Shown: piece after piece, positions 37,820 through 44,365 of the stretch | How the letters are laid out: each line of letters begins with the position of its first letter | How positions within the stretch are numbered: the first letter of the stretch is position 1 | NCBI GenBank assembly: GCA_009840945.1 | Contig: VXMU01000122.1 | Span: 9,330-56,346 of the forward strand | Origin: Chloroflexota bacterium | GTDB taxonomy: Bacteria; Chloroflexota; Dehalococcoidia; UBA2979 | DNA: 47,017 nt | Reading direction: 5' to 3' | Position numbers and translations under genes: made by a program | The notes under the pieces: generated by a model | What the model was told of the DNA's origin: nothing | What the model saw: the letters and a program-made list of their open reading frames with translations, nothing else | The model's database searches: none

Positions 37820-38710
37820 GTGCCGCCGCCCCACCCTGACTCGGCCGCTCTCATGACTGGCGCAACGGTCACGGCTGAAGCCGCCGTCCGCGCAGCAGTT
37901 GATCAGCTCCTCCAAGAGGCCCAGGTTCGTGAACCGCCTGCCCCCCTCGACCTCCTTGGTTCCATCCGTCGGATTGTCCGAATCGAGACCGTCGAGATGA
38001 CTGCGGCCGGGCGCCTTGTGCCGACAGGCACTAACGGCTACATCGTACAGGTCAGGGATGCTGACTCAGCGGGTCGACAACGATTCAGTATTGCCCACGA
38101 GATAATGCACACCTTCTTCGATGGCACTAGCGGCACCCGACGCCTGCGCGAGGATCAGGTCACAGGGGCCTTTGGGACGGTTCGCGAGGAGTACCTCTGC
38201 GATGTTGGTGCCGCGCACATGCTCCTTCACCCTAGCTGGCTCCATGAGCTGACCCTCAGTCGCGAGCAGTCGCTTGATCAGCTATTCGCGGTTGCTTCGT
38301 CCTGCGGAGCATCAGTCGAGGCCTCCGCTCGGCAACTCGCCCAGCTTGGCATGCCGCAGTGCTCGTTTCTCTTCTGGGAGCTCGGCTATAGGAAGGAAGA
38401 ACAGGCACGGGTGGAGCATGTGGCGCTGCCTGGGCTCGAGGAACTCGCAGCCCGACCCACACCGAAGCTGCGTGCCTCCCGTGTCTATGCCTCTCCCGGT
38501 TCACCGTTCTTCCCGCCCAACAAGTCGGTGGGAGATGACACGTCCATCGCGGAGGCGCTGCGCAGCCAGAATCGAACGCGGGCGGTCGAGGAATTCGAGA
38601 TCGGGACCAACGTGCTGCGCGCAGACTGCGAGTCGCAAGCCGTCGGCTACCGGGGAAGTGGCGGGCGGCTGGTAGAACGCGTGATTACACTCGCGCGCTG
38701 GAAGCAATAG
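37820..38710 (+). CDS. ImmA/IrrE family metallopeptidase
   Basis: A 296-residue protein. The zinc-binding HEIMH motif is at residues 93-97 (RFSIAHEIMHTFF), and the third ligand is probably Glu in REEYLCDVGAAHMLL. The remaining C-terminal 120 residues, with the segment FLFWELGYRK, are typical of long ImmA proteins and contain several cysteines. Family members cleave phage- or ICE-type repressors or, in Deinococcus, the regulator DdrO. GTG at 37820 is taken; an internal ATG at 37853 is possible. Lower GC than flanking genes. Confidence 0.88.
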   Translation: MPPPHPDSAALMTGATVTAEAAVRAAVDQLLQEAQVREPPAPLDLLGSIRRIVRIETVEMTAAGRLVPTGTNGYIVQVRDADSAGRQRFSIAHEIMHTFFDGTSGTRRLREDQVTGAFGTVREEYLCDVGAAHMLLHPSWLHELTLSREQSLDQLFAVASSCGASVEASARQLAQLGMPQCSFLFWELGYRKEEQARVEHVALPGLEELAARPTPKLRASRVYASPGSPFFPPNKSVGDDTSIAEALRSQNRTRAVEEFEIGTNVLRADCESQAVGYRGSGGRLVERVITLARWKQ

Positions 38711-39504: not shown

Positions 39505-40095
39505 ATGGTGGACTACGACGCACGCACGGCGCTCGTCGTCGTCGACGTGCAGAACGACTTCGCGCACCCGGACGGGTCGCTGTACGTGAACGAGGCGGCC
39601 GACGCCATCGTCGCCGTCAACGAGGAGATAGAGCGCGCCTCGGCGGCGGGCGCTGTCGTCGCCTACACACAGGACTGGCACCCCGAGCACACGCCGCACT
39701 TCGCGCAGGACGGCGGTATCTGGCCCGTCCACTGCGTCGGCGACTCGTGGGGCGCGCAGCTCCACGACGACCTCGCCGCGCTCGAAGGCGCGCCACGCGT
39801 CCGCAAGGGCGTGGGCGGCGAGGACGGCTACTCCGGCTTCACCGTCCACGACGTCGAGCGCGACGAGGACGCGCCGACCGAGCTGGAGGGTCTGCTGCGC
39901 GATCGCGGCGTCGAGCGCGTCGTCGTGGTGGGGCTGGCGACCGACTACTGCGTGCGAGACACGGCGCTCGACGCGGCGCGGCTCGGCTTCGGGACCACCG
40001 TGCTGACGCGCGCGATCCGCGCGGTGAACCTCGAACCCGGCGACGGCGAGCGGGCCATCGAGGCGATGCGCCTGGCAGGCGCGAGCATCGAGTGA
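39505..40095 (+). CDS. pncA: Nicotinamidase (PncA)
   Basis: A 196-residue enzyme that deamidates nicotinamide to nicotinate. The catalytic triad is Asp14 in VVVDVQNDF, Lys in RKGVGG and Cys in TDYCVRDT. The metal site is in QDWHPEHTPHF together with WPVHC. ATG follows GGGGAGG; a TATACC -10 is at about 39468. It overlaps pncB by 4 bp, so the two form an NAD salvage operon. Confidence 0.95.
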   Translation: MVDYDARTALVVVDVQNDFAHPDGSLYVNEAADAIVAVNEEIERASAAGAVVAYTQDWHPEHTPHFAQDGGIWPVHCVGDSWGAQLHDDLAALEGAPRVRKGVGGEDGYSGFTVHDVERDEDAPTELEGLLRDRGVERVVVVGLATDYCVRDTALDAARLGFGTTVLTRAIRAVNLEPGDGERAIEAMRLAGASIE

Positions 40096-41447
40096 GCCCC
40101 GCCCACGACCGCGAGGCGGCCGCGGGCGTCGACCTCGCGCTGTTCACCGACCTCTACGAGCTGACGATGCTCCAGTCCTACCAGGAGCACGGCCTCCGCG
40201 CGCCCGCGACGTTCGAGCTCTTCGCGCGCACGCTGCCCGAGGGGCGCAACTACCTGCTGGCGTGCGGCCTCGACTCTGCCCTCGCGTACCTCGAAACCCT
40301 CGAGTTCGGGGCCGAGTCGCTGGCGGCGCTGGAGCGCGTGGGCTTCCCGGCGAGCTTCCTCGACTGGCTCGGGGAGCTGCGGTTCACCGGCGACGTGTGG
40401 GCCATGCCCGAGGGGACCCCGGCGTTCGGGGACGAGCCGCTGCTCACCGTGGAGGCGCCGCTGCCCGAGGCGCAGGTCGTGGAGACCTACCTCATCAACC
40501 AGGTGCACTTCCAGACGCTCGTCGCCTCGAAGGGTGCGCGCGTCGTGACCGCCGCGGCCGGGCGGCCCGTCGCCGACTTCGGCGGGCGGCGCGCGCACGG
40601 CACGGACGCCGGGCTGACGGCGGCCCGCGCGCTGTACCTCGCGGGCATGGCGTCGACGTCGAACGTGGCGGCGGGGGCGCGCTACGGCATCCCGGTGACC
40701 GGCACCATGGCGCACAGCTACGTGCAGGCTCACGGCGACGACCATGCCGCGTTCCGCGACTTCGTCGCCACGCACCCCGAGACCACGCTGCTCGTCGACA
40801 CCTTCGACACCCTCGAGGGCGTGCGCACGGTCGTCGCGCTCGCCAGGGAGCTCGGCGACGCCTTCCGGGTGCGCAACATCCGCCTCGACTCGGAGCCGCT
40901 CGGCGAGCTCGCGGTCGAGGCGCGGCGCATCCTCGACGCCGCGGGGCTCGCCTTGGTGCGCATCATCGCGAGCGGCGGCCTCGACGAGCACAGCGTCGCC
41001 GACCTCGTCGCCTCCGGCGCGCCGATCGACGCCTTCGGCGTCGGCACGCGGGCGGTGACCTCCTCGGACGCGCCGACGTTCGACGCGGTCTACAAGCTCG
41101 TCGCGTACGACGGCGAGGGCCGGATCAAGCACTCGACGGGCAAGGCGACGCTGCCGGGCCGCAAGCAGGTCTTCCGCCAGCGCGACGCCTCGGGCCTCGC
41201 GCTCCGCGACGTCCTCGCCCGCGCCGACGAGCGCCACGACGGCGAGCCGCTGCTCGTCCAGGTCATGCGCGGCGGGGAGCGCCTCCCGGCGGGCGAGGAG
41301 TCGCTGGAGCACGCCCGCGAGCGGGCCGCCTCGGGGGTCGAGCGGCTGCCGGAGCGCCTACGAGCGCTCCAGGACGCCTCGCCGCCGTACGAGGTGGTGG
41401 TCAGCGACGCGCTGCAGGAGGACGCGGCGCGCCTCGGGCGGGCGTGA
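40092..41447 (+). CDS. pncB: Nicotinate phosphoribosyltransferase (PncB)
   Basis: A 451-residue enzyme forming nicotinate mononucleotide, the second salvage step after PncA. Features include LFTDLYELTMLQSY, ADFGGRRAHGTDAG, GTMAHSYVQAH, and the loop IRLDSEPL with IASGGLDEHSV further on. GTG at 40092 overlaps the pncA stop. NAD salvage here may matter for the NAD-using TIR proteins located 1.5 kb downstream. Confidence 0.95.
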   Translation: MSPAHDREAAAGVDLALFTDLYELTMLQSYQEHGLRAPATFELFARTLPEGRNYLLACGLDSALAYLETLEFGAESLAALERVGFPASFLDWLGELRFTGDVWAMPEGTPAFGDEPLLTVEAPLPEAQVVETYLINQVHFQTLVASKGARVVTAAAGRPVADFGGRRAHGTDAGLTAARALYLAGMASTSNVAAGARYGIPVTGTMAHSYVQAHGDDHAAFRDFVATHPETTLLVDTFDTLEGVRTVVALARELGDAFRVRNIRLDSEPLGELAVEARRILDAAGLALVRIIASGGLDEHSVADLVASGAPIDAFGVGTRAVTSSDAPTFDAVYKLVAYDGEGRIKHSTGKATLPGRKQVFRQRDASGLALRDVLARADERHDGEPLLVQVMRGGERLPAGEESLEHARERAASGVERLPERLRALQDASPPYEVVVSDALQEDAARLGRA

Positions 41448-42909: not shown

Positions 42910-42937
42910 GAACGCGCGTTCGCAGAAGCGCTATACT
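42910..42937 (+). promoter_or_regulatory. SOS box (LexA operator) and -10 of TIR gene 1
   Basis: GAACGCGCGTTC at 42910-42921 is a perfect palindrome fitting GAAC-N4-GTTC, the Gram-positive-type LexA box. TATACT at 42932-42937 is a good -10; the box covers the expected -35. The ATG is at 42972. Confidence 0.7.
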
Positions 42938-42971
42938 CCCGCTCGGCGGGGTTGGTCGGGGGGGATCACCG

Positions 42972-43355
42972 ATGGCTCGAACCGTCTTTCTCAGCTTTGC
43001 GGCCGAGGACCAGTGGCTGGCGAACGCGTTGCGTGCCGAGGCCGAGCACCGGGGTGGAGGCCTCGAGTTCCGCGACTCGGCGGTCTGGGAGCCGTTCGGA
43101 CGCGCGCGGCGAGCCCACGTCGAACGCCTGCTGCGGGCGTGCTCGGCGACGATCTGCCTGGTCGGCCAGACGACGTGGCGCAGCGACGCGGTGAACTGGG
43201 AGATCCGCAAGAGCCGCCAGCTCGGCAAGCGGGTCGTCGCGGTGCGGCTCTCGCCCGATGTCTCGCGGTTCCCGGAGGCGCTGATCAAGCCGGGCGTGAC
43301 GGTGCTCCCTCGGGACATCGAGCAGGTCGCCCGAGCGCTGGGGGCGGCGGCGTAG
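42972..43355 (+). CDS. TIR-like (ThsB/MTH538-type) domain protein 1
   Basis: A 127-residue single-domain protein. RTVFLSFAAEDQWLANAL, FRDSAVWEPF, CSATICLVGQTTWRSDAVNWEIRKSRQLGKRVVAVRL is the TIR-like pattern of DUF1863/MTH538 proteins, the group that includes ThsB of Thoeris. The Glu77 in NWEI occupies the position expected for the NAD-hydrolase catalytic glutamate. Such proteins make NAD-derived signals after infection. About 80 of 127 positions match the next gene. GGGGGATC precedes ATG at 42972. No ThsA gene is present; the candidate effector is 0.5 kb downstream. Confidence 0.86.
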   Translation: MARTVFLSFAAEDQWLANALRAEAEHRGGGLEFRDSAVWEPFGRARRAHVERLLRACSATICLVGQTTWRSDAVNWEIRKSRQLGKRVVAVRLSPDVSRFPEALIKPGVTVLPRDIEQVARALGAAA

Positions 43356-43394
43356 GGGTGGCGGTCGAGAGACGGTGCGGTCGGCCGTACTCTA

Positions 43395-43421
43395 GAACGA
43401 GCGTTCGCGGTGAGGTATAGT
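43395..43421 (+). promoter_or_regulatory. SOS box (LexA operator) and -10 of TIR gene 2
   Basis: GAACGAGCGTTC at 43395-43406 fits GAAC-N4-GTTC. TATAGT at 43416-43421 is the -10. The spacing from box to -10 is 9 nt, against 10 nt at the first TIR gene, and the surrounding TAGAACGNGCGTTCGC is shared, so the promoter was duplicated with the gene. Confidence 0.7.
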
Positions 43422-43448
43422 CCAACCTCGGGCGGGAAGGTGGCCGGG

Positions 43449-43835
43449 ATGCCGAGGAACGTGTTCCTCAGTTTCGCGATGGAGGATCAGCGGCTGGCCA
43501 ATGCGTTTCGTGCGCAGGCCAGGAACGGCCGGTCCGACCTTGAGTTCCGTGACTACTCCGTCAAGGAGCCGTTCGAGCGCGCCTGGAAGACGAACGTCGA
43601 GCGGCTGATCCGCATGTGCTCCGCCACCATCTGCCTGGTGGGTGAATCGACATGGTCGAGCGACGCGGTCGACTGGGAGATTCGCAAGAGCATTCAACTG
43701 GGCAAGAAGGTCGTCGCCGTCCGGTTGGGGCCCGATGTGCGTGAGGTTCCGGGCGCCTTGCGTGAGTTGCGGGTGCCCGTCGTGCCCTGGGACATCGAGG
43801 CGATCATGCGGGAACTCGGCGGTGTTGCGGCGTGA
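43449..43835 (+). CDS. TIR-like (ThsB/MTH538-type) domain protein 2
   Basis: A 128-residue paralogue of the preceding gene: VFLSFAMEDQRLANAF, FRDYSVKEPFER, SSDAVDWEIRKSIQLGKKVVAVRL. Putative catalytic Glu77 is conserved. Divergence is concentrated at residues 25-30, 46-49 and 98-122, while the core around 57-97 is almost identical. ATG at 43449 follows GGGAAGG. The stop overlaps the GTG of the membrane protein gene by 4 bp, so the two are made together. Confidence 0.86.
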   Translation: MPRNVFLSFAMEDQRLANAFRAQARNGRSDLEFRDYSVKEPFERAWKTNVERLIRMCSATICLVGESTWSSDAVDWEIRKSIQLGKKVVAVRLGPDVREVPGALRELRVPVVPWDIEAIMRELGGVAA

Positions 43836-44365
43836 CGACCGGTGACGCGGCCCTGGAGCGTCGACTCTTCCCGGGAGGCTCGCCAGCCTCGGACGAACGC
43901 ACGACTCAGTCCCTCCTCGACCAGTACCGGCTGCTCGTCGAGTCGTCGGAGCGCGTGGTCGCACGTCGTCAGACGGCCAATACGTTCTTCCTGTCGATCA
44001 ACTCCGCGCTGCTGATCTTCGCGGGTGTACTCCTTCGCGAGGGTGACGCGTTCGCCCTCGTGGGTGGCGCCGCAACTGCGGGCTTGGGCCTGATGGGATT
44101 CTTCATTTGCTTCGTCTGGTGGCGCATGGTGACGTCGTTCCGCCAGTTGAACACGGCGAAGTTCCAGATCATCCACCTGCTGGAGAGGTACCTCCCGGCA
44201 GCGGTCTTTGAGGCAGAGTGGAGCGCGCTCGGCGAAGGGCACGATCCGTCGCTCTATCGCCCCTTCACTCGCCTCGAGACACGGATCCCGGTAGCGCTCA
44301 TGGCGCTGTATGGAGTCGCAGCCCTGATTGGGGTCCTTATGGCGCTGGCGAGCGGCCTGCGCTGA
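43832..44365 (+). CDS. Three-helix membrane protein (RipA/SLATT-like), candidate effector
   Basis: A 177-residue protein. Residues 20-50 form a polar helix (QSLLDQYRLLVESSERVVARRQTAN). Hydrophobic segments lie at 52-68, 75-96 and 152-174, with a conserved-looking WWRMVTSFRQLNTAKFQIIHLLERYLP linker. This resembles the RipA-type octameric membrane proteins and the SLATT 2TM effectors that accompany nucleotide-signal defence systems; the resemblance is from memory of the pattern, not a search. The GTG start overlaps the TIR gene 2 stop. It is the natural candidate for a membrane-disrupting effector. Confidence 0.72.
   Translation: MTTGDAALERRLFPGGSPASDERTTQSLLDQYRLLVESSERVVARRQTANTFFLSINSALLIFAGVLLREGDAFALVGGAATAGLGLMGFFICFVWWRMVTSFRQLNTAKFQIIHLLERYLPAAVFEAEWSALGEGHDPSLYRPFTRLETRIPVALMALYGVAALIGVLMALASGLR

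What the first reader, a model, noticed from the sequence alone, without database searches (positions are those of the whole stretch)
42910..44365. Tandem TIR-like proteins plus a coupled membrane protein: candidate compact signalling/defence module
Seen in the sequence: two adjacent ThsB/MTH538-type TIR-like proteins and a three-helix membrane protein whose start overlaps the second TIR stop. Known: Thoeris pairs a TIR signal maker with an NAD-depleting or membrane effector, and CBASS-type systems use 2TM/SLATT effectors. The combination here lacks ThsA and any cyclase. Inference: infection or damage activates the TIRs, and their NAD-derived product opens the membrane protein to arrest the cell.
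Basis: partly seen in the sequence, partly recalled or inferred. Interest (0 to 1): 0.85.

Follow-up and report, generated by a model that had tools for sequence, protein, structure and literature searches.

The report
Damage-inducible TIR–membrane protein defence module
A Chloroflexota bacterium carries two TIR immune-type enzymes and a small membrane protein, a gene pairing found scattered through bacteria and archaea, and here it is wired to the switch that turns on DNA-repair genes, so DNA damage probably arms this cell-arrest system.

Summary
The window carries two ThsB-type TIR proteins (Pfam PF08937, catalytic Glu77 kept) and, overlapping the second, a membrane protein. That protein is not SLATT or RipA: it belongs to Pfam 8xMP (PF24838, 'octameric membrane protein family'). 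A TIR gene directly upstream of 8xMP recurs in Chloroflexota, Proteobacteria, Cyanobacteria, Actinobacteria and a haloarchaeon, twice inside or beside type I restriction loci. The TIRs involved are polyphyletic, and 8xMP also follows SLOG-type proteins, so it behaves like an exchangeable effector. PADLOC holds no model of the membrane protein.

The new point is regulation. Each TIR gene has its own perfect GAAC-N4-GTTC LexA box beside a -10 element. In this genome the same box precedes recA, ruvB, a recQ-family helicase and a Y-family polymerase, and it precedes recA in 30 of 30 family loci. A sister species keeps TIR1 and its box under purifying selection but has a toxin–antitoxin pair in place of TIR2–8xMP.

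Best reading: a LexA-repressed, Thoeris-like module in which DNA damage raises TIR levels and a NAD-derived signal opens or assembles 8xMP. Regulation is well supported; signal, pore and phage defence are inferred. A preprint surveying TIR systems could not be read.

The parts
42910..42921 (.). LexA/SOS box 1, GAACGCGCGTTC (perfect Cheo-type palindrome), 50 bp upstream of the TIR1 start
   Evidence: one of nine perfect GAACGNNCGTTC sites in the genome; same box at recA, ruvB, recQ and a Y-family polymerase; retained in sister species G002
42932..42937 (+). -10 element TATACT of the TIR1 promoter, just downstream of the box (the ruvB box also has TATACT just downstream)
   Evidence: Sequence; the composite box + TATANT pattern occurs only at TIR promoters in 45 genomes; no -35 consensus found
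42972..43355 (+). TIR1, ThsB-type TIR protein (127 aa), catalytic Glu77
   Evidence: PF08937 E 4e-14; PADLOC ThsB 1e-12; ortholog in G002 94% identical, dN/dS about 0.1 by NG86
43395..43406 (.). LexA/SOS box 2, GAACGAGCGTTC, 42 bp upstream of the TIR2 start
   Evidence: 15 of 16 bp shared with box 1 inside a diverged flank; identical to the recA boxes of this genome
43416..43421 (+). -10 element TATAGT of the TIR2-8xMP promoter
   Evidence: Sequence; composite pattern match
43449..43835 (+). TIR2, ThsB-type TIR protein (128 aa), catalytic Glu77, translationally coupled to 8xMP
   Evidence: PF08937 E 9e-16; AlphaFold2 model pLDDT 88, best PDB match 8fz9 E 6e-8
43832..44365 (+). 8xMP-family membrane protein (177 aa, three predicted TM helices), proposed effector; start overlaps the TIR2 stop by 4 bp
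   Evidence: PF24838 E 6.9e-36; 13 of 13 relatives hit the same family; TIR directly upstream in other genomes

Best explanation
This is a LexA-controlled, Thoeris-like module with a duplicated TIR. At rest LexA sits on both boxes and keeps both TIR genes, and the coupled 8xMP gene, low. When DNA damage, replication stress or phage attack on DNA activates RecA, LexA is cleaved and TIR1, TIR2 and 8xMP are made along with recA, ruvB and a repair polymerase. The TIRs use NAD+ through Glu77 to make an ADP-ribose-type signal. That signal assembles or opens the 8xMP complex in the inner membrane, depolarising and arresting the cell (abortive infection or damage-triggered dormancy/death). Shown here: TIR and 8xMP family membership, catalytic Glu, overlapping TIR2/8xMP genes, recurrent TIR-8xMP linkage, LexA-type boxes shared with SOS genes, purifying selection. 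Inferred: LexA binding, NAD cleavage, a diffusible signal, 8xMP as the effector, octamer/pore activity, phage defence.
For: Boxes: the only two GAACN4GTTC sites in 47 kb precede the two TIR genes. The same perfect box lies at recA (twice), ruvB, a recQ-family helicase and a Y-family polymerase. It precedes recA in 30/30 family loci. The genome encodes LexA (TIGR00498, over cut-off), and the motif equals the B. subtilis Cheo box (PMC9700832). A composite box + -10 pattern gives 3 hits in 45 related genomes, all at TIR promoters, with none in the reversed control. Effector role: a TIR lies directly upstream of 7 of 35 Chloroflexota 8xMPs, including all six best, and of 8xMP in Polaromonas, Synechococcus, Novosphingobium, Paenarthrobacter and Natronosalvus plasmids. 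The partner TIRs are polyphyletic and keep Glu. 8xMP also follows SLOG-type proteins. Defence setting: within or next to type I restriction genes and near a TIR-caspase pair.
Against: No LexA-type box was found at other TIR-8xMP loci, so SOS control looks lineage-specific. Sister species G002 keeps TIR1 and its box without 8xMP (none found genome-wide), so TIR1 has some 8xMP-independent use or a partner not found. The 8xMP model is only moderate (pLDDT 77.6) and matches no solved structure. No sigma-70 -35 consensus was found. lexA itself has only a one-mismatch site. No biochemistry or phage data exist for this pair in what I could read.
Confidence: 0.58

Rival explanations
1. The TIRs are the killers. 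SOS-induced TIR1/TIR2 directly deplete NAD+, and 8xMP is a membrane anchor, infection sensor or restraining partner rather than a signal-gated effector.
For: TIR1 is kept with its SOS box and under purifying selection in G002 without 8xMP. Stand-alone TIR NADases such as SpbK exist (abstract of PMC12847820).
Against: 8xMP pairs with several unrelated TIR lineages and with SLOG-type proteins, the pattern expected of an exchangeable effector. The TIRs are short single-domain ThsB-type proteins, closest to signal makers.
Confidence: 0.25
2. The boxes are bound by LexA, but the module's role is damage-induced dormancy or programmed death, not phage defence.
For: SOS-type promoters at both TIR genes. 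In sister genomes the same site holds an HTH/Gp49 toxin-antitoxin-type pair. SOS-induced membrane toxins such as TisB are a known theme (own knowledge).
Against: Relatives without SOS boxes sit in restriction loci and on plasmids, a defence pattern.
Confidence: 0.3
3. The palindromes are chance, or bind another regulator, and the genes are an ordinary constitutively expressed Thoeris-like pair.
For: About 2.6 perfect GAACGNNCGTTC sites would be expected by base composition in 2.5 Mb (my estimate); no -35 consensus.
Against: Nine were found, five of them at recA/ruvB/recQ-family/Y-polymerase genes and two at TIR genes; footprint conserved between paralogs and between species.
Confidence: 0.08
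4. Two unrelated acquisitions lying side by side: TIR1 is an old resident and TIR2-8xMP a later arrival, with no joint function.
For: TIR2 and 8xMP have lower GC (0.64-0.65) than TIR1 and the window (0.72); G002 has TIR1 without TIR2-8xMP.
Against: TIR1 and TIR2 are close paralogs sharing promoter layout and box; several ThsB genes per effector gene is a normal Thoeris layout (PMC11204291).
Confidence: 0.2

Closest known systems
Thoeris (types I and II: ThsB TIR with ThsA SIR2-SLOG, or ThsB with TM-macro ThsA)
   Same: ThsB-type TIR with catalytic Glu, one or more TIR genes next to one effector gene; the type II effector also acts at the membrane (PMC11204291; PMC12948488)
   Different: No SIR2-SLOG and no macro domain; the effector is a 177-aa 8xMP protein without a recognised ligand-binding domain; LexA-box promoters
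Caspase-type Thoeris (TIR next to a caspase-family protease)
   Same: Small ThsB-like TIR directly upstream of an exchangeable effector; related TIRs
   Different: Effector is a protease, not a membrane protein
SLATT / DUF4231 membrane effectors linked to TIR or SLOG
   Same: Small membrane protein coupled to TIR or SLOG genes; proposed nucleotide-gated membrane effector (PMC9503650)
   Different: The 8xMP proteins hit no SLATT model; three predicted TM segments with a cytosolic loop between TM2 and TM3
8xMP (Pfam PF24838)
   Same: Family membership, E 7e-36
   Different: No paper naming the family was found; the octamer claim is only in the Pfam name and was not tested
LexA/SOS regulon of Cheo-box type (CGAAC-N4-GTTCG)
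   Same: Identical box, shared with recA, ruvB and a Y-family polymerase; LexA present
   Different: Members here are TIR immune-type genes, a wiring I found at no other TIR locus examined

Membership tests
Thoeris | ThsB: TIR domain of PF08937 type with catalytic Glu | tested here: met
Thoeris | ThsA effector (SIR2-SLOG or TM-macro) encoded next to ThsB | tested here: not met
   Neighbours are an alpha/beta-hydrolase-like protein, DoxX and 8xMP; PADLOC gives no hit for 8xMP. Not filed as Thoeris type I or II
Thoeris | Phage-triggered ADPR-type signal activating the effector | not testable with these tools
   Needs biochemistry
Caspase-type Thoeris | Caspase-family effector next to the TIR | tested here: not met
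   seen instead in L068, L122, L123
SLATT effectors | Match to a SLATT Pfam model | tested here: not met
   None of 13 relatives matches SLATT at E up to 10, while a true SLATT protein (L120) does
8xMP (PF24838) | Full-length match over the gathering score | tested here: met
   123.5 bits against cut-off 30, profile 1-133 of 136
8xMP (PF24838) | Octameric membrane assembly | not testable with these tools
   Monomer model only
LexA/SOS regulon | Lineage-specific LexA box in the promoter, shared with recA | tested here: met
LexA/SOS regulon | LexA encoded in the genome | tested here: met
   TIGR00498, 169.9 bits against cut-off 110.95
LexA/SOS regulon | Induction by DNA damage | not testable with these tools
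   Needs expression data

The most novel reading that the evidence does not exclude
An undescribed TIR-8xMP signalling system, spread across bacteria and archaea, in which an ADPR-type signal gates an octameric membrane pore; and a Chloroflexota lineage that has placed this immune system under LexA, joining the SOS response to TIR immunity.
Probability: 0.42. Interest if true: 0.78.

Novelty: new variant of a known kind. Interest (0 to 1): 0.62.

Why it matters
TIR systems are usually pictured as waiting for a phage cue. A TIR module whose two promoters carry the same LexA box as recA would make DNA damage an arming signal for TIR immunity, and this can be tested with one binding assay and one induction assay. 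The recurrent TIR-8xMP pair also points to a membrane effector class that PADLOC does not hold, with an obvious question about which signal opens it.

Tried and rejected
SLATT/RipA identity: rejected. Solved relatives of 8xMP: none by sequence or fold. 8xMP in phages or viral contigs: none found, and none for TIR2 in viral contigs. LexA boxes at other TIR-8xMP loci: none. The box at recA of the six distant Chloroflexota genomes checked: none, so the motif belongs to this family. [quoted passage not shown]

Full report
What is there. Both TIRs exceed the Pfam cut-off for ThsB_TIR PF08937 and match PADLOC ThsB models. A model of TIR2 (pLDDT 88) matches B. cereus TIR 8fz9, ThsB and SARM1 in the PDB. 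Glu77 is kept in all 16 TIRs compared. The two TIRs are 64% identical with dN/dS about 0.2, so neither looks decayed. The membrane protein belongs to Pfam 8xMP PF24838 (E 7e-36), not to SLATT or RipA. It has three hydrophobic segments. Across 13 relatives the invariant residues include R45, R46, E118, E129 and E149, which the predicted topology places on the cytosolic side (inference).

The conserved unit is TIR plus 8xMP. Among 400 Chloroflexota genomes, a TIR lies directly upstream on the same strand of 7 of 35 8xMP genes, including all six best matches. The TIR profile used was built from five of these loci plus the window, so TIR scores there are circular; the adjacency is not. On plasmids the same pair occurs in Polaromonas (after a type I restriction R subunit), Synechococcus, Novosphingobium, Paenarthrobacter (near a TIR-caspase pair) and the archaeon Natronosalvus. 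In G337 the pair sits between hsdS/FRG-type and hsdR genes. The TIRs that pair with 8xMP fall in separate clades, and related TIRs pair with caspases or SLATT proteins. 8xMP also follows SLOG-type proteins, including a TRPM-type SLOG. Interchange on both sides is what signal-maker/effector modules show. I therefore read 8xMP as the effector; this is inference.

The SOS link. The only two GAACN4GTTC sites in the window lie 50 and 42 bp upstream of the two TIR starts. In this genome nine perfect GAACGNNCGTTC sites exist: two at recA, one each at ruvB, a recQ-family helicase and a Y-family polymerase, two at the TIR genes, and two at ORFs of unknown role. All 30 recA loci examined from the family carry GAACN4GTTC upstream. 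The motif is the Cheo box of B. subtilis LexA (PMC9700832), and LexA is encoded. Between TIR1 and TIR2 upstream regions, 15 of 16 bp around the box are identical while the flanks are much less conserved. A composite pattern of box plus -10 has three matches in 45 related genomes, all at TIR promoters, and none in the reversed control. Caveats: lexA itself has only a one-mismatch site, and no -35 consensus was found.

A natural comparison. Sister species G002 has the same locus at 90% DNA identity, with TIR1 (94% identical, dN/dS about 0.1) and its box. In place of TIR2-8xMP it has an HTH/Gp49 toxin-antitoxin-type pair. In G001 the same site has a similar HTH/Gp49-type pair and no TIR. The site is thus a small variable spot. 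TIR1/TIR2 divergence (dS 1.3) predates the species split (dS 0.43 for TIR1 by NG86), so TIR2-8xMP was either lost in G002 or came in separately. TIR1 is selected without 8xMP, which is the main difficulty for a strict one-pathway model.

Mechanism. My best reading is LexA derepression on damage, TIR synthesis of an ADPR-type signal, and gating or assembly of 8xMP in the membrane, ending in arrest. The regulatory step is supported by sequence. The chemistry and the pore are inferred from family knowledge. The strongest rival on mechanism is that the TIRs act directly on NAD.

Novelty. It meets the ThsB feature of Thoeris but not the ThsA feature, so it works like Thoeris without being filed as type I or II. 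PADLOC has no model of the membrane partner, and no paper naming 8xMP was found. A 2025 preprint surveying TIR systems is not held, and Thoeris types up to VI are already cited (PMC13232231), so TIR-8xMP may already have a name. I found no report of LexA control of TIR immunity in the library. I rate it a new variant of a known kind, with the SOS wiring as the surprising part.

Noticed in passing
39505-41447: Nicotinamidase and nicotinate phosphoribosyltransferase genes (NAD salvage) end about 1.5 kb upstream of TIR1 on the same strand. The phosphoribosyltransferase is also at this site in G001, which has no TIR, so this may be coincidence, but it suits an NAD-consuming module.
   Followed up: partly
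37820-38710: IrrE/ImmA-like M78 peptidase gene with lower GC than the window, possibly a separate mobile or stress gene.
   Followed up: no
L076:1501-1512 and L080:1501-1512 (G000 C11 and C42): Two more perfect LexA-type boxes, next to small membrane-protein ORFs of unknown function; candidates for further SOS-regulated membrane proteins.
   Followed up: no
L071:328-4435 (Rhizobium plasmid): An 8xMP gene follows a large NB-ARC/WD40 protein gene directly, a possible NLR-like sensor with the same membrane effector.
   Followed up: no
L018:1453-2743 (G281): 8xMP follows a gene with a TRPM-type SLOG domain (LSDAT_prok).
   Followed up: no
L120, L121, L156: TIR genes with HhH-GPD and QueC-like (7-cyano-7-deazaguanine synthase) genes, plus SLATT or caspase partners, on rhizobial plasmids and in a genome of the window's class; looks like a larger TIR-based locus.
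   Followed up: no
L050:7588-8095 and G376:C146:4446-4858: In G376 two 8xMP genes next to TIRs are broken by frameshift or stop, suggesting frequent decay or assembly error.
   Followed up: no
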